From positions 1,422,201 to 1,486,200 of the forward strand of contig OX637359.1 of assembly GCA_951799405.1 (NCBI GenBank): a DNA stretch of 64,000 nt, given 5' to 3'. This DNA comes from Agapetus fuscipes. Taxonomy: Eukaryota > Arthropoda > Insecta > Trichoptera > Glossosomatidae. This document shows positions 14,145-51,970 of the stretch, one piece after another. A program made the position numbers and the translations under genes. Within the stretch, counting starts at the first letter, position 1, and every line of letters begins with the position of its first letter. The notes below the pieces were generated by a model. It saw nothing but the letters and a program-made list of their open reading frames with translations, was not told where the DNA came from and ran no database searches.

Positions 14145-14277
14145 TTCCTTGACTTATAGGTTGATATGAGGCTGACCACTCATACTGTAAAAAACGTTTC
14201 ACTTTGCCGATGTCCCCCCTGTTGCAGGGTTTATGTTCATTTGAGGTCTGGATTTTAATTTGTGAATTCACTATGGT
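14145..14277 (+). repeat. Family-L fragment upstream of the RTE ORF
   Basis: The 5' portion of a family-L 3' region, ending where the 5'-truncated RTE-like ORF copy begins. Confidence 0.6.
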
Positions 14278-15262
14278 GTGAAAGTGGGTGAGACGAATGT
14301 TGGAGTTCTTCTCTATGCTGACGATGCCGTAGTGTTGGCTGATACAGCGGAGGAGCTCCAGATGATACTCACCAAAATGAATGATGCTTTTAGTAAGAAC
14401 GGTTTAAAAGTGAATGCCAGTAAGACGAAAGTATTAGTGTTTGACAGGACTGAGGAATGTGAGGAAATTGAGATAAGACTGAATGAAACAAGAGTGGAGG
14501 TCGTGAAAGAATTTGATTATCTGGGAAGCAAGTTTGAGTCGAATGGGAAATTGACGAAAGAATTGGAAAAGCGTGCTAGTAGAGGAAGAAGTGTAATGGG
14601 AACGATTGGAAGAATTGCAAGAAATAGGAAACTTACGAAGAATATGAGATTGGCGGTCCACAATGGCATATTGGTTCCAACATTGATGTATGGAAGTGAG
14701 GCGTGGACAGTTAATGAATGTGAGCTGAGTAAAGTATGTACGGTTGAAATGGCTTACCTGAGAGCAATGGCTGGAAAAACACTGAATGATAGAGTACGTA
14801 ATGATTGGGTGATGAACGAGTGTGGTATAAAAGAGAATATGAGAATGAAAGTACAAAAAAGTACGATGAGATGGTTCGGACATCTCGAAAGAATGGATGA
14901 TGAACGACTAACGAAGAAAGTGTACAAAGGAAATGTCAGAGGAAAGCGCGGAAGGGGAAGGCCGAGGAAAGAATGGTTAGACCAAATAGGTGAGATTGCG
15001 AAAGAATGGAACCTGCAGAGTGAAAATAAGAGAAGAGTATGCATGAAAAAGGTGATGAATATTGAGGAAATGAAAGTGGTTTGTAAGGACAGAAAAAAGT
15101 GGAGGCGCATCTGCGGAGGTACCGGCCACCCCTAGTGAAACGGCGGCAGGATACAGTAACTTGCAGCATTTGTAAGCCCTTATTTACACATGTCTGTTTG
15201 TGAGCATGCATTTAATATTAATTTTAAATGACAATGTACATTTACAACTTAGATTATAGATT
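14278..15262 (+). mobile_element. RTE-like LINE, 5'-truncated, open RT C-terminus
   Basis: A 285-codon open frame (14278-15135) holding the end of a non-LTR reverse transcriptase. It includes the catalytic box LLYADDAVVLA (YADD at about residues 13-16), LPTLMYGSE-type LVPTLMYGSEAW, MRWFGHLERM, and a basic [20 protein letters not shown] segment, ending CGGTGHP. No frameshift interrupts it, so this copy is young or recently inserted. The 3' UTR (15136-15262) ends in the family-L tail. It is the longest coding copy of the LINE whose fragments fill the window. The clade is probably RTE-like; I am less sure of the exact clade than of the RT identity. Confidence 0.85.
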
Positions 15263-18507: not shown

Positions 18508-19048
18508 ACATGATGGTTTGGGCATATGGAGAGAATGAATGAGGAAAGACTGACGAAGACAGTATATGTTGGTAGAATAGATGGATGTCGTGGTAGAGGA
18601 AGACCGAGAAAGGTATGGATGGACCAAATATCCGAAATTGCGAATGAATGGAATATCCAGAGTCATAATAAAAGAAGAGCTTGTATGAAGAAGGTTATGA
18701 CTCTGGAGGAAATGAAAGAAGTATGCAAGGATAGAAAGAAATGGCGGTTGATCTGTGATAATGGCGGCTAGGGTTTGTTAAAGTGAAATTGGTTTTATGA
18801 TTTAGTTTTTTTATGTCCATGTATATATTGTTATTTATTGATTTAAAAAAATGTTATTTGTCATGTATGTTCCTTGACTTATAGGTTGTTATGCGGCTGA
18901 CCACCCATAATATAAAAAATTGGTTCACTTTGCCAATGTCACCCCTGTTTCAGGGAAGGACGGCAAGAGTTGCAAGGCTTATGTTCATTTGAGATTGGGT
19001 TTTTATATTGTAGGTCCACATGCGACATGTGTTAGCGCGAAATTATAC

Positions 19049-19519
19049 TGTTACGAAATTAGGGTTCAATTGTCTTCAAATTAAAAATACACAGGTCTTC
19101 TTCAATAGTTATTTATTTTACACTGTTACAAAATTTATTTTCACACTACTTTCTCGATTATTCCATTGGTTTCGGTTCACTGATCAGATGGCTTCGATGT
19201 GTTTGTTAGTCGCTATGATACTGGCCCGCTCTGCAGGCCATTCGCACCTTTATACTCTTCAGAGCAGTATGATCCAGAACTAAAGTCGCCAGACGGTTCC
19301 AGAGTAATTATTACTTCTCGATGTTTCACGTACTACCTAGACACAACCAAAATCCTACCTACCAATGCAATACAGTATTCCTATAATTATAACAAATACC
19401 TACTTAGCCTAGAGAATTCTACACTTATACATAATTATCGATCTTACCTACCAATACTTTTGAGGATTCTTATAACTATAACTACCCATACTTATTTCAA
19501 TATTTATATTTACATAACA
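19049..19519 (-). repeat. 3' LTR of the Gag-macrodomain element
   Basis: In element orientation it starts TGTTATGTAAATATAAATA and ends TTCGTAACA. A TATAAAG box lies at 19254-19248, and an AATAAA-type signal lies near the end (about 19109-19116). Confidence 0.95.
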
Positions 19520-19533
19520 CTACCCCCCACCTA
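19520..19533 (-). other. Polypurine tract of the LTR element
   Basis: Element-strand GGTGGGGGGTAG directly abuts the 3' LTR. It doubles as the last Gly codons and stop codon of the Gag-like ORF. Confidence 0.8.
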
Positions 19534-21856
19534 GACTGTTTCGTCCCGGAACAGTCTTGACTCTGTGTAGGTAGGGGCATGCTGATCCACGTCGACACCC
19601 TGTGGTTAGGAAGAAGTGGCAGTCCACGGATTTCTCCCCACTGGCTCTCGGCTGCGCTTGCTCGCAGCACACCATGACGCTGATGCCGACTCCCGAGAAC
19701 ACTGCTTCAATCATACTCCGGATTATCCGCCAGTCTCGATTAGCGCGGCCGCCACCCATCTTCGGTATTGCCAGACGCGCCTGCTGATCCTCCAACATGT
19801 AGTCACGCAGCTCAACAAGGCCGTCCCACAATGCCTTGTAGTCCTCTTCCAGGTTGCTGGAATCCGGGACAACCAGGCAGTATGCTTGTTGACGCCCCTT
19901 CGGTAGTCTCAGAGCTCTTCCTAGCGGGCTGCTCGAGGGTTGCGGTTCTCCGAATTTGTATCGGAAGACCCGTGCAATTCCTCTAGACATATCTAGATCT
20001 TCCGGTACACTGCATGCCAGTGTGTGGTCCCCAGTGACCTCAAATAAGTCCTTGTGGACTTCTGTGGTCACTCCATGGCGAATCTTCTGTCCCTCTTGCA
20101 CCTTGCTCCAGAACGTCTCAAACAGGGGCGCTTCTTTGGATGCGACGCATTTTTGTACTCTCTGGGCGGGCTGGTCATTGTTTGACCACTTTGCTCTTTG
20201 AGTTGGCCGGTGGTTATCCTTCATGCGAGCACCCGCCTCATTGTTGTTGCTGATCTTGGACTCCAGGTTGGCAATGGTGTCCTTTGCCCTGGGCACCTGC
20301 CCAGTCTCCAGCTGCTGGAGCTTAGTCCTAAGCCCCTTGTTCTGTCTCTCCAGGCTCATCACAGTCTCGTGCAACTCGTCCCTCTCGGCCTCCGCTGTTC
20401 GCCGGACCCTTTCACTGCTGGCCAAGTTCTTCGTCAGCTGCCTGTTCTCCGTCTCCATGACTTTGACCTTTCTCTCGGCATCCTGGAGCTGAACTTGCAG
20501 TTTCCTCAGCCGTTTGTTCATCTTCATGGTGGTCTCTACATCCTTGCGGTCGTCTTCCAATTTCTCCGGTCCTTGAGACTTTGGGCACCTAGCGCTCAGG
20601 TGTCCTTGCTGGCCACACGTCCAGCAGTGCGCCCCCTGTCTCGTTGGCTCAAGTTGCTGCAGCACTTTTTCTATTATTTCCTCCGTCGTCAGTGGCTTGG
20701 TTTCTTGCACTTTCATCGCGCATACTCTGACGTGGCCCCTGATGGACTGTTTGACAGCCTCAAATTCGAGAGCTCGGCTTAGCGCCTCGTTCAACGTCTT
20801 CGGAAGAGCCAGCTTCACTGCTTGCTGCGTCTCCCATTCTCTCAATCCGTTCAGGAACTTGTCCACTGCCAAGCTCTCGCAGATGTCATCAGGGAATGTC
20901 GGGTAAGCGTCTCGTACTAGGTGGACGATGTCCATCTCAAACTCCTGGAGGCTCTCGTTGGGCTTCTGCACCCTTGTGTTCAGCTGTGACTTGTACAGCT
21001 GCTCCAGGCACTTGTGGCCATAGCGCATATCCAAGCGCTGCTTCAGCTGCCCAAAGTCACCACGGTTGTCCAGGGGTATGGCCTGCAGAACCCTGAGAGC
21101 GTCTCCTCGGAGCGACAGGCTGAGAACCGAAGCCTTCTTCTGCTGGCTCCAGGCTCCCATCATGGCAGCCGTCTCAAAGAGGGTCAAATACTCCTCCCAC
21201 GACGTCTTCCCGTCGAAGGTCGGAAGGTTGTGCTTCGACAGCGAAGGGTCGTCATCCCCTCTAGTGATCCTGGTTGGAGTTGAGCATCCCTGGTCGGTCT
21301 CGTCGTGAAGGCCGCCTTTGGGGGAGATTCTGGTGGACTCCATCTGGCACTTGTCAGCCAGCTCGGCACGCAGACGATCCTCCAGGCTTGCCACACGGGC
21401 CTCAATCTCCGACATTGCTCGCGAGCTTTCTGCCACTTTCTTCTCCAGCCCGGCTAGGTTGCTGGTCATCTTCTCCTCCAGCCCAGTCATCTTCTCCTCC
21501 AGCCCGGTCAGGTTGCTGGTCATCTTCTCCTCCATGGTTGCCAGGTCCTCCTTCAGGGTCTTGGCGTTGTCAGCCATCTCCACTTTCAGTCCTGTCAGGT
21601 TACTGGTCATCTTCTCCTCCATGGTAGTGAGGCCTTCCTTCAAGTTTCCATTGATGCTGAGGTTCAGCTCCTCAAGGGCGCGGTCTCCCCCAGATGCCAT
21701 GACAAAGTATGCCGGGTCTTCGCCTGACTGTTCTAGAGCTTCCATGAGGCGTGCTTGTAAGGCCGCCTTCCCTCCTGAGGTCTCCAGGTCCCTCTCCAGA
21801 AGCTCATTCTTAAGCTCAGTGACTTTGAGGTCCTTGATGTTCACCTTAGCTGCCAT
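19520..21856 (-). CDS. Gag-like protein with macrodomain and CCCH finger
   Basis: 778 residues from the ATG at 21856 (MAAKVNIKDL); an upstream in-frame run of Lys codons from a T-tract is not needed. Domains: SAP-like helix pair (8-42); coiled coil (68-170) with repeats of EEKMTSNLTGL; retrotransposon Gag capsid (about 209-375, LPTFDGKTSWEEYLTLFE); CCHC knuckle C411-x2-C414-x4-H419-x4-C424; second coiled coil (440-535); macrodomain of the TARG1/OARD1 type (about 602-731), recognised by KDLFEVTGDHTLACSVPEDL, GIARVFRYKFG, YCLVVPDSSN and AIPKMGGGRANRDW; CCCH finger C746-x7-C754-x5-C760-x3-H764. The stop codon sits at the polypurine/LTR boundary. At positions aligned with the TARG1 catalytic Lys and Asp I read Pro/Asp and Ala, so hydrolase activity is doubtful, but ADP-ribose binding is possible. 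Gag should package element RNA; a role for the macrodomain in handling ADP-ribosylation is inference. Confidence 0.9.
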   Translation of the reverse strand: MAAKVNIKDLKVTELKNELLERDLETSGGKAALQARLMEALEQSGEDPAYFVMASGGDRALEELNLSINGNLKEGLTTMEEKMTSNLTGLKVEMADNAKTLKEDLATMEEKMTSNLTGLEEKMTGLEEKMTSNLAGLEKKVAESSRAMSEIEARVASLEDRLRAELADKCQMESTRISPKGGLHDETDQGCSTPTRITRGDDDPSLSKHNLPTFDGKTSWEEYLTLFETAAMMGAWSQQKKASVLSLSLRGDALRVLQAIPLDNRGDFGQLKQRLDMRYGHKCLEQLYKSQLNTRVQKPNESLQEFEMDIVHLVRDAYPTFPDDICESLAVDKFLNGLREWETQQAVKLALPKTLNEALSRALEFEAVKQSIRGHVRVCAMKVQETKPLTTEEIIEKVLQQLEPTRQGAHCWTCGQQGHLSARCPKSQGPEKLEDDRKDVETTMKMNKRLRKLQVQLQDAERKVKVMETENRQLTKNLASSERVRRTAEAERDELHETVMSLERQNKGLRTKLQQLETGQVPRAKDTIANLESKISNNNEAGARMKDNHRPTQRAKWSNNDQPAQRVQKCVASKEAPLFETFWSKVQEGQKIRHGVTTEVHKDLFEVTGDHTLACSVPEDLDMSRGIARVFRYKFGEPQPSSSPLGRALRLPKGRQQAYCLVVPDSSNLEEDYKALWDGLVELRDYMLEDQQARLAIPKMGGGRANRDWRIIRSMIEAVFSGVGISVMVCCEQAQPRASGEKSVDCHFFLTTGCRRGSACPYLHRVKTVPGRNSLGGG

Positions 21857-22205
21857 TTTTTTTTTTTTTTTCAAAATTTACGTCAAAACAAAAATATTTT
21901 CAAATTTATTTAATACAAGTTTTGAGTTTTATATATATAGCTGTTTTGAATACGTACTTTAGCAAAAATAATAATTTGTCTGATTACACTGATTGGTAGG
22001 TAGGTACTGTCTTTTAATATTTATTTTTAATTCACCAATATTTTTAACATAATAATGTCTGATAGTACATAATTATTTATTTCGTCTCAAGTCTTTCAAA
22101 CACACAGGTAGGTACTTAATGTACATTCACACACTTGTAAACAAAGGATAGTTATTCAAAAACTTTTTCTCGATGAATCTGGAACGTTCTTTTGTAATAT
22201 TTTTC

Positions 22206-22244
<39 letters not shown>

Positions 22245-22548
22245 CACACACAATAATAAAAAACTATGGTCCAATTTGATGACTTTCTCAATGCGGTAAA
22301 ATAGTCATTATGTTATGTCCAGAATTATGTCCAGAATTATGTTCCGTATGATGTTCCAGAATTTATAAGCAACTTGCTTTTGCGTCTTTTCTTTTAACAA
22401 GAATTTATTTAAACACTTGTTTTCACAAAAGTCAGTTCACACAAAGTTCAATTTGAATAAAGTTCATTTTAACACTATTTAATATATTTTATTTATTTTT
22501 AGACAGAAGATCTTAATTTTTCTTGACAATTCCGCACCTGACGCCAAT
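21857..22548 (-). other. 5' leader of the LTR element
   Basis: About 690 bp between the 5' LTR and the ATG, AT-rich, with a T-run of about 32 bases (22211-22242, plus strand). It should contain the packaging signal, but none could be identified by eye. Confidence 0.6.
22530..22546 (-). other. Candidate primer-binding site
   Basis: Two bases inside the 5' LTR the element strand reads TGGCGTCAGGTGCGGA. It begins TGG, as expected for pairing with a tRNA CCA end, and shares the GTCAG core with tRNA-Leu-type sites of insect elements. The exact primer tRNA needs a search. Confidence 0.65.
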
Positions 22549-23019
22549 TGTTACGAAATTAGGGTTCAATTGTCTTCAAATTAAAAATACACAGGTCTTC
22601 TTCAATAGTTATTTATTTTACACTGTTACAAAATTTATTTTCACACTACTTTCTCGATTATTCCATTGGTTTCGGTTCACTGATCAGATGGCTTCGATGT
22701 GTTTGTTAGTCGCTATGATACTGGCCCGCTCTGCAGGCCATTCGCACCTTTATACTCTTCAGAGCAGTATGATCCAGAACTAAAGTCGCCAGACGGTTCC
22801 AGAGTAATTATTACTTCTCGATGTTTCACGTACTACCTAGACACAACCAAAATCCTACCTACCAATGCAATACAGTATTCCTATAATTATAACAAATACC
22901 TACTTAGCCTAGAGAATTCTACACTTATACATAATTATCGATCTTACCTACCAATACTTTTGAGGATTCTTATAACTATAACTACCCATACTTATTTCAA
23001 TATTTATATTTACATAACA
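22549..23019 (-). repeat. 5' LTR of the Gag-macrodomain element
   Basis: Same sequence as the 3' LTR with no difference noticed. The TATAAAG box at 22754-22748 would drive transcription leftward through the Gag-like ORF. Confidence 0.95.
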
Positions 23020-23144
23020 ATACATATCTGCTTGTGGGAATGCATTTAATATAAATCTTAAATGATATATATCTTTGCTTAGATTAGCTTAGATTAGATT
23101 AGATTAGATTAGATTACACCCTGCAACTTTTGCCGACCTCCTGT

Positions 23145-45337: not shown

Positions 45338-48300
45338 ATGGATGTTGCTGTGAAGCTTGAGAAGGAGCCAGACTCGCATTTTGTGGATGCACAAACAGAG
45401 TTTCCATACGAAATAGACATTGTCGAGAACGATGTGAAAGAAGAGAGATTGTCCCATGAAAAAGAATGGAAAGTCGAGGACTCTGAACAGATTGTTGTAA
45501 GGACTAAAAGTTCTGCCCTATCTCATGGCTTGCCGATAAATTACTTGGTTATTGATGAAAAAAATATAGAAAAAACTGGTAGGACATTTTATCCATCTTT
45601 TTTGTATACCTAACTTGTTGCAGCATAATATGTATGGAATCTAGACCAGTCCTTAGTCTAGTGGTCAACGCTTTGGAATCGAAGGACTGTGGGCTCGATT
45701 CAAGGTGGAGCATAATATATATATATATATTTTTCATTTTTCTAAAATGCTTTTCGCTTGGGTTGAAATATTCATTTGCCTGTACTCATTGAACAATGAG
45801 GTCCACACATGGTTTGACATAGACAATATTGTGACGTCACCCGGCCGGGTTGCTAGGGAAAAAGCAAACATACTTTGGTATTGGTTGCCAAGGACGGTAG
45901 TCCCTAACAAGACTGACGTTTGCTGACCGAGAAAAGAGTTCCTAATTCGAAAATGTTCTGAGTCCATCTGAGAGCCTTTTGTTTACAAATCACTTTTTAC
46001 GAGCCCTCTGTGAGCTTGGTCGTAGCTATAGAATGTGCTAATTCCCATCCAAAACCCAGTTGCTGTAAGGCTAGATGATTTGGGGACCGTTTTTTTTTTT
46101 TATAGATTTGTGAAGAGGAATGCAATTCACTAACCTATTCTGTCTGGCCAGAAACAGGTATTAATATCATCAATTAATAATTCATTATTGTTTATTTTAA
46201 TGAATTATTAATGAATAATCACCCAATAACATCTGTTGAACCAGGGTCAAATGACCCAGGCGGGAATCGAACTAACGTTGTTCTATTCCAAACACGCTAG
46301 AAAGATCAGCCCACTTGGCCCCCTCGGCTATAACACCGATTCTTTGATAAAGGCATATTATTTTTTCAACCCAGCTAAGAGTATATTTTGTAAATTCAAT
46401 GATAATTTTTTTGTGCTCTGCCGGGAATCGAAACTATTACCTCACTAAATCAATGTTAAATTTACAGATGATAGTCAGACAAATGATTCAGCCAAGGTGG
46501 ATCATGTGTGCCGTGCCTGCAGCTACAAGGTCAATCAAAAGAGACTCCTGAGGATCCATCAGTTGTTCAGTTGCTGCAATTTAAAGAGTGCATATAGAAG
46601 TAGAAGTATTCAAGAAACAAGAAACAGCCATATAACCTCGACGAGTGGGCCATCCACTTTATCAGATCAACAAAGAAGAAATAATAACAATAGTGAGGAA
46701 GAAAAGACACAAACAGATCAAGATAAAAATGTAACAACTTCTCCGAACACAAAACTATATTCTTGCGATAAATGTGGCTATAAATCAATGTCACAATCAG
46801 ATTTAAATAGACACTTAAAAAGTCATCCTGACAAGAATTTCTCATGTGATCAGTGCGAATATAAAACTACAAATGCAAGCACTTTAAAATGTCACAAAAT
46901 CAAACACTCTGAAGAAAAACCATTCGCATGTGATCAGTGTGACTTTAAAACTTCGTGGGCATCGTGCTTAAAGAAGCATAAATTTAAACACACTGGGATC
47001 AAACCGATTGCTTGTGATCAGTGCGATTTTAAAACTACATTGTTGTCAGCTTTAAAAAATCACAAATTCCAACATTCTGGAATGCAAAAGAAGCAACTTT
47101 CTTGCGATCAATGCGATTACACAACTGCATATCGTACACATTTAAAAACTCACAAACTTAAACATTCCGGACAAAAAGCGTTTGCTTGTGATCAGTGTCA
47201 TTATAGATCTAGGGCTCTGGGAGATTTGAAAAAACATTCTTTGATACACACCGGAGATAAACCGTACGCTTGTGACCAGTGTAATCATTCAACCAGAACT
47301 TTCTCGGATTTGAGAAGACATAAATACATGCACACCGGAAACAAGCCATTCGCTTGTGATTTGTGCGAATTCACTACAACCGTATTTGCAAATTTGAAAA
47401 CGCATCAATTTTTACACACTGGAAATAAACCATTCGCTTGCGATCACTGCGATTTCACTACTGCAATAATGGCAAATTTAAAAACGCATAAATATGCACA
47501 CACCGGAGCCAAACCTTTTGCTTGTGATGAGTGCGAATATAGAACTACAAGTGCAGGGTATTTGACGAAACATAAAGTTAAACATTCTGGACTTAAACCG
47601 TTTACTTGCGATCAGTGTGATCATAGAACTAGAACCATATCAGAGATGAAAAGGCACAAATACTCACATACTGGACATAAACCATTTGCTTGTGATCAGT
47701 GTGAATACCGAGGTGCACAGGCTTCTGATTTAAATAAACATAGTTTTATACACACCGGTAAAAAACCATTGGCTTGCAATCAGTGTGATTTTACTACTGC
47801 CATAATGTCAAATTTGAAAACTCATAAATTTGTACACTCGGGAAACAAACCGTTCGCTTGTGACGAGTGTGAATATAGAGCTTCAACAGTTGCAGATTTG
47901 AAAAAACATAAATTAATACACACCGGAGACAGACCGTTTGCTTGCGATCAATGCGAATTCACCACAATAACAATTTCAAATTTAAATAAACATAAATTCA
48001 CTCATACAGGATACAAACCATTCGCTTGTGATTTGTGCGATTTCACGACTTCAATGTTGTCAAATTTAAAAACGCATAAGTTTACACACACTGGATACAA
48101 ACCGTTCGCTTGCGATCAATGCGATTATAGAACTACAACGAGATCGGATTTGAAAAAGCACGAATTCAAGCACTCAGGGCACAAACCGTATGCTTGTGAA
48201 CAGTGTGACTTTAAATCTGCGACAGTGTCAAATTTGAGAGTGCATTTATTAAAACACACTGGAGATAAACCATTCGCTTGTGATCAGTGCGATTACAGAG

Positions 48301-48389
48301 CTGCTCGTTCAGATACTTTAAAAAAGCATAAAGCAACACACACTGAACTTACACCTTACTCATTTAATACCTTAAATGATTATCAGTAA
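45338..48389 (+). CDS. C2H2 zinc-finger protein with 19 fingers
   Basis: Two exons, 45338-45578 and 46468-48389 (AAAACTG|GTAGGA and TTTACAG|ATGATAG), giving 720 residues. Exon 1 encodes an acidic leader with no recognised domain (not a ZAD). Exon 2 starts with a lone Cys pair finger C95/C98 (VCRACSYKVNQKRLLRIHQL, ending in Cys instead of the last His). After a Ser/Asn-rich linker comes an uninterrupted array of 19 C2H2 fingers from C180 to about residue 705, mostly of the form FACDQCDY-x3-SDLKKHK with HTG-x-KPFACD linkers. Tandem arrays with such linkers bind DNA; the target is unknown. The array sits in one exon. Fingers are close to each other in sequence, which suggests expansion by duplication. 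The intron carries SINE A, family C and SINE D copies. Confidence 0.93.
45640..46345. mobile_element. SINE A (+), family C (+), SINE D (-) in zinc-finger intron
   Basis: 45640-45790 is the head part of SINE A with an (AT)n run; 45820-45985 is family C ('gtgacgtcacccggccgggttgctaggg'); 45995-46085 is a reverse SINE A piece; 46106-46345 is minus-strand SINE D with head at 46250-46345. Confidence 0.65.
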
Positions 48390-50179: not shown

Positions 50180-51970
50180 GAAATGTTTGAAAAAGATGGT
50201 AGAATGACAGGTGAACTTGAAAGAAGAGTAATGAAGGGCAGGTGTGTACTGGGTGCCACAGCTTGTATTGCCAAAAATCAAAACATATCTAAAAATGCTC
50301 GATTGGCGGTACGCAGTGGCATACTTTTACCCACCTTGATGTATGGAAGCGAGTCCTGGACGGTGAATGAAAGTGAAATTAGCAAAGTCCATACTGTTGA
50401 AATGGACTTTCTAAGAAGTAGGTATGATTGGGAAAAAACGGAGTGACAGGGTGAGGAATGATTTTGTAAGAGAAGAATGTGGTGCAAGAGAAAGTGTGAA
50501 AGTGAAGATTAAAAAAAGTTTTTTAAGATGGTTTGGGCATATGGAGAGAATGAATGAGGAAAGACTGACGAAGAAAGTATATGTTGGTAGAATAGATGGA
50601 TGTCGTGGTAGATGATAATGATGATGATGATAATGATGACTTGGTATAGCGCCGTTTCGTGAAAATTGTCACTCCAAGGGCGCTTTTTGTGTTATCGCGG
50701 CGAAGTAGTGTGTCTTGAGGGTTTTTTTAAGGTTTTCCCTGGATTTTGAAACTCGAACTTCCGGTGGCAGTTGGTTCCACGAAGAGGGACCCGCAACAGC
50801 AAACGCACGATTGCCAAACACTGTGGTTATTTTTCTGGTTGGCTCGTTTACCAATGTTTTTGAGCCCCTCTCTGCCGAGCGCAACGTCAGTCCTCTCTCC
50901 TGTAAAACCTTCGGTCGCACTAGCTCCTGCAAGTACTCAGGAGCCATTCCTTGTAGAGCGTTGAACACAATGAGATTTAACTTAAAATTTATTCTCTGGG
51001 GAATTCTCAGCCAGTGGAGTCCTTGCAAAAGTGGCGTGATGTGACAGTACCTGTTTTGTCCGAATATCAGGCGTGCACCGGCATTCAGTATTGACTGCAG
51101 TCTATTCAGCTGATATAGTGGTTGTGCAGCATAGATGGCATTGCAATAGTCCACTTTGGACACAACAAAGGCATTGACAAGCGCTTTCATAGCCTCTAGT
51201 GGGAGGCAACTCTTGACTTGTTTGAGCTGCCTGAGGCCGTAGAAACCAGCGGAAGACCGAAAAAAGTATGGATGGACCAAATATCCGAAATTGCGAATGA
51301 ATGGAATATCCAGAGTCATAATAAAAGAAGAGCTTGTATGAAAAAGGTTATGACTCTGGAGGAAATGAAAGAAATATGTAAGGATAGAAAGAAATGGCGG
51401 TTGATCTGTGATGTTGGCGGCTAGGGTTTGTTAAAGTAAAATTGGTTTTATGATTTAGTTTTTTATGTCCATGTATATATTGCTATTTATTGATTTAAAA
51501 AAAAAAAAAATGTAATTTGTCATGTATGTTCCTTGACTTATAGGTTGTCATGCGGCTGACCACCCATACTGTAAAAAATGGTTCACTTTGCCAATGTCAC
51601 AGGGTTTGTTAAAGTAAAATTGGTTTTATGATTTAGTTTTTTATGTCCATGTACTTATATATTGTTATTTATTGATTTAAAAAAAAAAAAAATGTAATTT
51701 GTCATGTATGTTCCTTGACTTATAGGTTGTCATGCGGCTGACCACCCATACTGTAAAAAATGGTTCACTTTGCCAATGTCACCCCTGTTTCAGGGAAGGA
51801 CGGCAAGAGTTGCAAGGCTTATGTTCATTTGAGATTGGGTTTTTATATTGTAGGTCCACATGCGGCATGTGTTAGCGCGAAATTATACATATCTGCTTGT
51901 GGGAATGCATTTAGTATAAATCTGAAATGATATATATCTTTGCAGCTTAGATTAGATTAGATTAGATTAG
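50180..51970 (+). mobile_element. RTE-like LINE, split by a CR1-like LINE
   Basis: 50180-50612 (MTGELERRVMKGRCVLGATA, ILLPTLMYGSESWTVNE, frameshift near 50435, then SFLRWFGHMERMNEERLTKK) and 51251-51420 (RPKKVWMDQISEIANEWNIQ to the stop), then 3' UTR and (GATTA)n tail to 51970. The 3' UTR beginning is tandemly duplicated (51421-51599 and 51600-51781). Confidence 0.85.
50613..51250 (-). pseudogene. CR1/L2-like LINE 3' end inserted in the RTE-like copy
   Basis: Minus-strand open frame of about 200 codons: KVDYCNAIYAAQPLYQLNRL, NAGARLIFGQNRYCHITPLL, LHWLRIPQRINFKLNLIVFN, MAPEYLQELVRP, VFGNRAFAVAGPSSWNQLPP and KTLKTHYF. This is the end of a CR1/L2-type RT. The tail is a CAT/ATG microsatellite (50613-50640). 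It interrupts the RTE codons after 'gtcgtggtag' and is therefore younger. Confidence 0.8.

What the first reader, a model, noticed from the sequence alone, without database searches (positions are those of the whole stretch)
19520..21856. A retrotransposon Gag fused to a TARG1-like macrodomain and a CCCH finger
Seen: one uninterrupted 778-codon ORF between identical LTRs combines a Gag capsid and CCHC knuckle with, further C-terminal, a segment reading as a macrodomain (residues about 602-731) and a CCCH finger (746-764), in the place where protease and pol would normally follow. Known: macrodomains bind or remove ADP-ribose; RNA viruses use them against host PARP responses; TARG1/OARD1 is the closest cellular type by motif. 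Inference: the element captured a host macrodomain and may use it to neutralise ADP-ribosylation of Gag or RNP, or to target ADP-ribosylated chromatin (a SAP domain at the N-terminus also suggests chromatin contact). I do not know of a described element with this architecture.
Basis: partly seen in the sequence, partly recalled or inferred. Interest (0 to 1): 0.88.

Follow-up and report, generated by a model that had tools for sequence, protein, structure and literature searches.

The report
Ty3 retrotransposon family carrying a macrodomain
A jumping gene in an animal genome carries, at the end of its protein, a copy of a cell's ADP-ribose-recognising domain that has lost its known cutting residues, so it may serve to find marked chromatin rather than to erase the mark.

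Summary
In detail: on the minus strand (ATG 21856, stop 19520) an intact 778-aa frame joins SAP, coiled coil, Gag capsid, CCHC knuckle, second coiled coil, a TARG1/OARD1-like macrodomain (598-729, E 4e-10) and a CCCH finger, between identical 471-bp LTRs with an ATAC duplication. It is no single-copy chimera: a search with the second coiled coil scored 150 matches, 122 in frames of 740 aa or more. The larger finding lies outside the window. Autonomous partners of 7.1-8.1 kb with near-identical LTRs have gag plus a 1422-aa pol whose C-terminus, after integrase, is the same macrodomain-CCCH module, where chromoviruses keep a chromodomain. A sister family has the same order. A third Ty3 family carries a TARG1-like macrodomain with catalytic Lys and Asp kept, between RNase H and integrase. 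In the window's family those residues are lost in all 37 copies read, while most adenosine- and phosphate-contact positions are kept. Best reading: an ADP-ribose reader on integrase or Gag, aiming complexes at ADP-ribosylated chromatin; an eraser is less likely. Binding and targeting are inferred. In the open-access library searched, the only precedent seen was fish retroviruses with a macro-domain ORF.

The parts
19045..19048 (.). target-site duplication ATAC (left)
19049..19519 (-). 3' LTR of the element (471 bp)
   Evidence: identical to the other LTR
19520..21856 (-). ORF, 778 aa plus stop: SAP / coiled coil / Gag capsid / CCHC / coiled coil 2 / macrodomain / CCCH
19520..19532 (-). polypurine tract AGGTGGGGGGTAG, which also encodes the last glycines and the stop codon
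   Evidence: read by eye
19565..19633 (-). CCCH zinc finger, residues 742-764
   Evidence: Pfam zf-CCCH E 1.1e-3, just under cut-off; also under cut-off in sister family L050
19670..20065 (-). TARG1-like macrodomain, residues 598-729; T83, K84 and D125 replaced by V, P, A
20177..20566 (-). second coiled coil, residues 431-560; no match in the 8 autonomous copies read
20579..20626 (-). CCHC zinc knuckle, residues 411-426
   Evidence: Pfam E 1.5e-3, just under cut-off; PDB nucleocapsids
20702..21259 (-). Gag capsid region, residues about 200-385
   Evidence: weak Ty3_capsid match, E 0.16; homologous to gag of the autonomous partner; pN/pS 0.135
21332..21679 (-). first coiled coil, residues about 60-175, variable
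21731..21838 (-). SAP domain, residues 7-42
   Evidence: Pfam SAP E 7.8e-9; pN/pS 0.10
21857..22548 (-). 5' leader
   Evidence: shared with the autonomous copies, about 86-100% in 150-bp pieces
22532..22546 (-). candidate primer-binding site TGGCGTCAGGTGCGG, two bases inside the 5' LTR; tRNA not identified
   Evidence: read by eye
22549..23019 (-). 5' LTR of the element (471 bp)
23020..23023 (.). target-site duplication ATAC (right)

Best explanation
SHOWN: the window holds a young, pol-less member of a Ty3/mdg4 family whose autonomous copies encode Gag and, in an overlapping frame, PR-RT-RH-INT-GPY/F-macrodomain-CCCH. The pol-less form has SAP-Gag, a coiled coil of its own where PR to GPY/F would be, and the same macrodomain-CCCH end. 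INFERRED: the macrodomain descends from a TARG1-type enzyme but works as a reader: it keeps most adenosine and phosphate contacts and has lost the catalytic side chains. On integrase it would tether the integration complex to ADP-ribosylated chromatin or DNA-repair sites, as a chromodomain tethers chromoviruses, with the CCCH finger and SAP domain adding nucleic-acid contact. In the pol-less element the module rides on Gag, and reverse transcriptase and integrase come in trans from the autonomous partner.
For: Partner: in 8 of 8 autonomous loci read (L009-L016) the LTRs are 99.6-100% identical to the window's, gag residues about 201-428 86.6-88.0% and the last 567 nt 98.9-99.3%. Four of 8 have the 1422-aa frame unbroken. 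Pfam finds PR, RVT_1, RNase H, H2C2, rve and p58_C/SH3 in that order in L009 and L050, followed by the macrodomain (TARG1 match of L050 E 3e-18) and CCCH. Residues, class 4: T83->V, K84->P, D125->A in 38 of 38 rows; class 3: K84->R, D125->A in 2 of 2; D20, L21, F22, G43, P118 and GxG kept in both. Between classes 3 and 4, 9 of 11 binding positions are identical against 58 of 121 others (Fisher one-sided P 0.03; set chosen by me). Long retention as protein: class 3 and 4 macrodomains keep 52% aa identity while synonymous differences are near saturation (pN/pS 0.47, 0.37-0.58). The place after the GPY/F region (motif name recalled) is the chromodomain's (integrase C-terminus, abstract of PMC3605345).
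Against: No binding, localisation or integration data. The pol-less element keeps the module without integrase, which an integrase tether alone does not explain. The macrodomain evolves faster than RT and INT (52% against 88% and 85% aa identity). Within class 4 the module is nearly invariant even at synonymous sites (pS 0.0044, pN 0.0039), so selection on the protein cannot be measured there (pN/pS 0.89, interval 0.28-4.25). All 20 clean target duplications read NTAN, a local preference that needs no reader. Of the adenosine positions, L47 differs in both classes. Loss of K84/D125 excludes only TARG1's mechanism; other macrodomains hydrolyse without them (general knowledge).
Confidence: 0.45

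Rival explanations
1. Passenger or cis-sequence: the pol-less element keeps the macrodomain-CCCH end because it adjoins the polypurine tract and LTR, where template switching with the partner's RNA keeps copying it in; the protein does nothing there.
For: In 150-bp pieces the module is 96.7-100% identical to the window's in 28 pol-less and 8 autonomous copies while gag differs more; pS is 0.004 there against 0.13-0.16 in SAP and capsid; the PPT lies inside the last codons.
Against: 122 of 150 scored copies have frames of 740 aa or more, which run through the second coiled coil (hand count by frame length). LTR pieces next to it vary more (medians 95.4-98.7% in pol-less copies against 99.3-100% for the module), so plain 3'-end copying is not the whole story. 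It does not explain the module in the Pol of two families.
Confidence: 0.22
2. RNA module: macrodomain plus CCCH bind RNA, helping genome packaging or RNP assembly in both proteins.
For: The module is on both Gag and Pol; CCCH fingers often bind RNA (general knowledge); the class-3 finger resembles CPSF30 fingers (E 7.6e-4); some macrodomains are poly(A)-binding modules (introduction passage of PMC6397177).
Against: Gag already has a CCHC knuckle; conserved ADP-ribose contact positions suggest a nucleotide ligand; the CCCH matches are below Pfam's cut-off in both families.
Confidence: 0.18
3. Eraser: the macrodomain removes ADP-ribose from Gag, the RNP or host proteins to blunt a PARP response, as viral macrodomains do.
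For: TARG1 ancestry; RNA-virus macrodomains do this (general knowledge). For class 2 the case is good: S35, T83, K84 and D125 are kept in 9 of 9 copies.
Against: In the window's family K84 and D125 are lost in 38 of 38 rows, and the TARG1 pattern TKx(30,35)Px[IL]GxGxD (PMC6397177, section read) is absent by eye; class 3 has lost both residues too, 2 of 2.
Confidence: 0.1

Closest known systems
Ty3/mdg4 (Metaviridae) LTR retrotransposons, chromoviruses
   Same: LTRs, 4-bp TSD, Gag with CCHC, Pol order PR-RT-RH-INT, and an extra module after the integrase
   Different: the module is a TARG1-like macrodomain plus CCCH finger, not a chromodomain (no chromo family among the 10 listed at E<=1 for the C-terminal 292 aa)
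Gag-only non-autonomous LTR elements (TR-GAG, plants)
   Same: LTR pair with a gag frame and no pol
   Different: here the frame carries a second coiled coil and the partner's Pol C-terminal macrodomain-CCCH; TR-GAG seen only as a search listing, its definition recalled
TARG1 / OARD1 (C6orf130) macrodomain
   Same: closest solved structure by sequence (E 4e-10) and head of the Foldseek list
   Different: S35, T83, K84 and D125 replaced
Teleost epsilon-like endogenous retroviruses with a macro-domain ORF (Basta et al. 2009)
   Same: an LTR retroelement carrying a macro domain
   Different: described as an additional ORF of a retrovirus, not a domain of Pol or Gag; known here only from passages of the review PMC4977317; the original paper was not held
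DarG macrodomain
   Same: weak profile match and fold match
   Different: bacterial antitoxin family; far below its cut-off (23.5 of 250 bits)

Membership tests
Ty3/mdg4 LTR retrotransposon | paired TG...CA LTRs with short target-site duplication | tested here: met
   471 bp, identical, ATAC. Of 37 loci, 29 had two full LTRs by the script; 20 of these show identical 4-bp flanks; in the other 9 the called boundary fell in LTR-like sequence (8) or at a primer-binding site (1), seen
Ty3/mdg4 LTR retrotransposon | Pol order PR-RT-RH-INT | tested here: met
   in the autonomous partner L009 and sister L050; the window's own copy has no pol. No RT tree was built
Gag-only non-autonomous element | gag frame, LTRs, no pol, partner with the same LTRs | tested here: met
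Gag-only non-autonomous element | mobilised in trans by the partner | not testable with these tools
   inferred from near-identical LTRs and leader and LTR-LTR identity of 98.9-100% within loci
Macrodomain | significant sequence or fold match to macrodomains | tested here: met
   sequence; fold match supportive but from a low-confidence model; Pfam Macro not reached
TARG1 enzyme | catalytic K84 and D125 | tested here: not met
   P and A in 38 of 38 class-4 rows
TARG1 enzyme | ADP-ribosyl hydrolase activity | not testable with these tools
   needs purified protein
Chromovirus | chromodomain at the integrase C-terminus | tested here: not met
   Pfam scan of the C-terminal 292 aa of L009 Pol at E<=1 lists 10 families, none a chromodomain

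The most novel reading that the evidence does not exclude
Ty3 elements of one animal genome have taken up TARG1-like macrodomains in two places of Pol with two opposite fates: a catalytic-type eraser between RNase H and integrase (the slot where, from memory, some lentiviruses carry dUTPase) and a catalytically dead reader after integrase, the slot of the chromodomain.
Probability: 0.35. Interest if true: 0.9.

Novelty: new variant of a known kind. Interest (0 to 1): 0.75.

Why it matters
If the module reads ADP-ribose, it would be a retroelement integrase aimed by a DNA-damage and chromatin mark, directly testable with purified domains and insertion maps. It would also widen the use of macrodomains in genetic conflict from RNA viruses to retrotransposon Pol and Gag, and the eraser-type and reader-type families in one genome give a built-in comparison.

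Tried and rejected
Rejected: single-copy chimera (58 scored of 2517 candidates, 55 of the 58 without a stop inside; 150 scored of 239 candidates with the second coiled coil). Rejected: assembly artefact (clean TSD, empty-site paralogues). Rejected as evidence: dN/dS of the macrodomain within class 4 (too few differences). Class 5 was not counted as a functional macrodomain: it matches class 2 (E 2.8e-10 and 6.7e-10) but not human TARG1 (best E 0.099 and 0.43, elsewhere in the locus).

Rows dropped: L018 (frame holds a stop; 28 of 29 pol-less loci used); L001, the window's own copy, left out, and matches under 100 nt ignored there; 8 of 37 loci without two full LTRs; 9 of those 29 left out of the flank profile.

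Led nowhere: viral contigs with P0001 and with A1 and genome contigs with A1 gave no confirmed relative (they hold viral and prokaryote contigs). Pfam Macro at E<=1 does not see class 2 or class 4 and sees class 3 only at E 0.11. Rfam and tRNA scans of the window were empty. No source for the second coiled coil was seen (its 150 rows look like the element's own copies). The tree of 8 rows gives three groups and cannot tell one capture from two. Ten paper searches: macrodomain + LTR retrotransposons + integrase, 0 papers; macrodomain + transposable element + ADP-ribosyl + domesticated, 0; the 20 listed of 105 for integrase/chromodomain/Ty3/macro domain hold no 'macro domain'; some searches were judged from listings, and one search gave the fish precedent; (10 listed of 4,590, none with OARD1) is uninformative; two searches sought TARG1 and TR-GAG papers. 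Most subscription papers are not held.

Full report
WHAT IS THERE. The finding's coordinates hold an uninterrupted 778-codon frame on the minus strand, from ATG at 21856 to a stop at 19520. It lies in an element of 3971 bp (19049-23019) with two identical 471-bp LTRs, a leader with a candidate primer-binding site, a polypurine tract that also encodes the last codons, and a 4-bp duplication ATAC. Joining the flanks gives a sequence that matches other copies of a dispersed repeat across the junction, the best at 94.7% over 190 columns. So this is a clean, recent insertion.

NOT A CHIMERA. In the 618-Mb genome the full protein scored 58 copies of 2517 candidates, the window's own included, 55 of 58 with no stop inside. 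That list favours intact copies. A search with the second coiled coil alone, which does not depend on the macrodomain, scored 150 of 239 candidates; 122 of the 150 sit in frames of 740 aa or more (hand count by frame length). The macrodomain itself was read in 29 pol-less loci.

THE AUTONOMOUS PARTNER. The LTR search scored 40 of 1953 candidates and showed LTR pairs about 7 kb apart. Eight such loci of 7.1-8.1 kb were read (L009-L016). All eight have the window's LTR at 99.6-100%, a gag region 86.6-88.0% identical over residues about 201-428, and at the 3' end the window's last 567 nt at 98.9-99.3%. Four of eight have an unbroken 1422-aa pol frame; in the other four pol is broken by stops or a change of frame, and L015 and L013 have a broken gag. 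In L009 pol overlaps gag by 49 nt in the -1 frame. Its order is protease, RT, RNase H, integrase H2C2 and core, GPY/F region (p58_C and SH3 models), then macrodomain and CCCH. In one search, 37 rows have a frame of exactly 1422 aa (hand count). The macrodomain thus belongs to the end of Pol, in the slot of the chromodomain of chromoviruses (abstract of PMC3605345). The window's element has that end on a Gag without pol, joined through a coiled coil with no match in the eight autonomous copies.

OTHER FAMILIES. Searching the genome with human TARG1 (150 scored of 995 candidates) showed more. Class 1: an apparent cellular TARG1 gene, three loci, K84 and D125 kept. Class 2 (nine loci, L041-L049): a TARG1-like macrodomain in a Ty3 Pol (L041 against TARG1 E 8e-23), catalytic residues kept in 9 of 9. 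It lies between RNase H and integrase by Pfam in L041 and by eye in L043-L048; the frame of L042 lacks the RNase H end and that of L049 stops after the macrodomain. Class 3 (two loci read, L050 and L051): the same order as the window's family, pol frames of 1453 and 1445 aa. Class 4: the window's family. A search with the class-2 domain (150 scored of 988) added class 5 (two loci read, L052 and L053): a degenerate relative in the RNase H-integrase slot, 27% identical to class 2, E 2.8e-10, with no direct match to TARG1. Only the loci named here were read; other rows are assigned by score and frame length.

ENZYME OR READER. Against TARG1's site (PMC6397177, section read): S35, T83, K84, D125 are kept in class 2 (9 of 9). 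In class 3 they read A, T, R, A (2 of 2). In class 4 T83, K84 and D125 read V, P, A in 38 of 38 rows and S35 reads P in 37 of 38; the 38 rows are 37 copies with the window's counted twice. D20, L21, F22, G43, P118 and the GxG loop are kept in classes 3 and 4; L47 is not; class 2 has lost D20 and L47. Between classes 3 and 4, 9 of 11 binding positions chosen by me are identical against 58 of 121 other columns (one-sided P 0.03). This is the pattern of a ligand reader. It does not prove binding and does not rule out a different hydrolytic route.

SELECTION. Among 28 pol-less copies, SAP and capsid show purifying selection (pN/pS 0.10 and 0.135). The macrodomain shows almost no differences of any kind (pS 0.0044, pN 0.0039), so its ratio (0.89, interval 0.28-4.25) says nothing. 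Between classes 3 and 4 (one copy each) synonymous sites are near saturation, yet the macrodomain keeps 52% aa identity (pN/pS 0.47, interval 0.37-0.58) and the CCCH tail 50%; RT keeps 88% and integrase 85%. In class 2 (L041 against L046) the macrodomain keeps 73% and integrase 84% (pN/pS 0.22 and 0.14). The domain has been kept as protein for a long time, but evolves faster than the core enzymes.

HOW IT MOST LIKELY WORKS. Shown: the architecture, the partner and the residue losses. Against this stand the lack of any binding data, the module's presence without integrase in the pol-less form, and its odd nucleotide-level uniformity, which suggests exchange with the partner. An RNA-handling role and a passenger role remain open.

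WHAT IS KNOWN. In the held open-access library no paper has macrodomain, LTR retrotransposons and integrase together. A review says some fish epsilon-like retroviruses carry a macro-domain ORF (passages of PMC4977317). I know of no described element with a macrodomain inside Ty3 Pol or Gag; that rests on the searches and on memory.

Noticed in passing
L041-L049: Class 2: TARG1-like macrodomain with catalytic residues kept (9 of 9), between RNase H and integrase of a different Ty3 Pol; a likely eraser.
   Followed up: partly
L052:1826-2254 and L053:1171-1569: Class 5: degenerate relative of the class-2 macrodomain in the RNase H-integrase spacer of a further Ty3 family; such spacers in other elements may be relict macrodomains (speculation).
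   Followed up: partly
19520-20065 and the same stretch in 36 other copies: The macrodomain-CCCH stretch is nearly invariant, also at synonymous sites, while LTRs, coiled coils and gag vary; cause (template switching, sweep or nucleotide constraint) unresolved.
   Followed up: partly
19045-19048, 23020-23023 and 19 other loci: All 20 clean target-site duplications read NTAN with an invariant central TA.
   Followed up: partly
L004, L005, L013, L017, L030, L032, L033, L035: LTR-like sequence directly outside the called 5' LTR boundary, as if the LTR start were partly duplicated.
   Followed up: no
G000:C33:10380118-10385967: Two pol-less copies 3504 bp apart, and the LTR of the first (L019) runs on into a primer-binding site: looks like a tandem pair sharing a middle LTR.
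   Followed up: no
L038, L039, L040: Three loci of an apparent cellular TARG1 gene, two of them on one 12.5-Mb contig.
   Followed up: no
C5:10653759, C16:316943, C21:2392379: Frames of 1838-1843 aa, the size expected if gag and pol were fused in one frame.
   Followed up: no
46449-48389: Long tandem C2H2 zinc-finger frame; named by eye.
   Followed up: no
14266-15135 and 50669-51430: Frames that look like LINE reverse-transcriptase fragments; named by eye.
   Followed up: no
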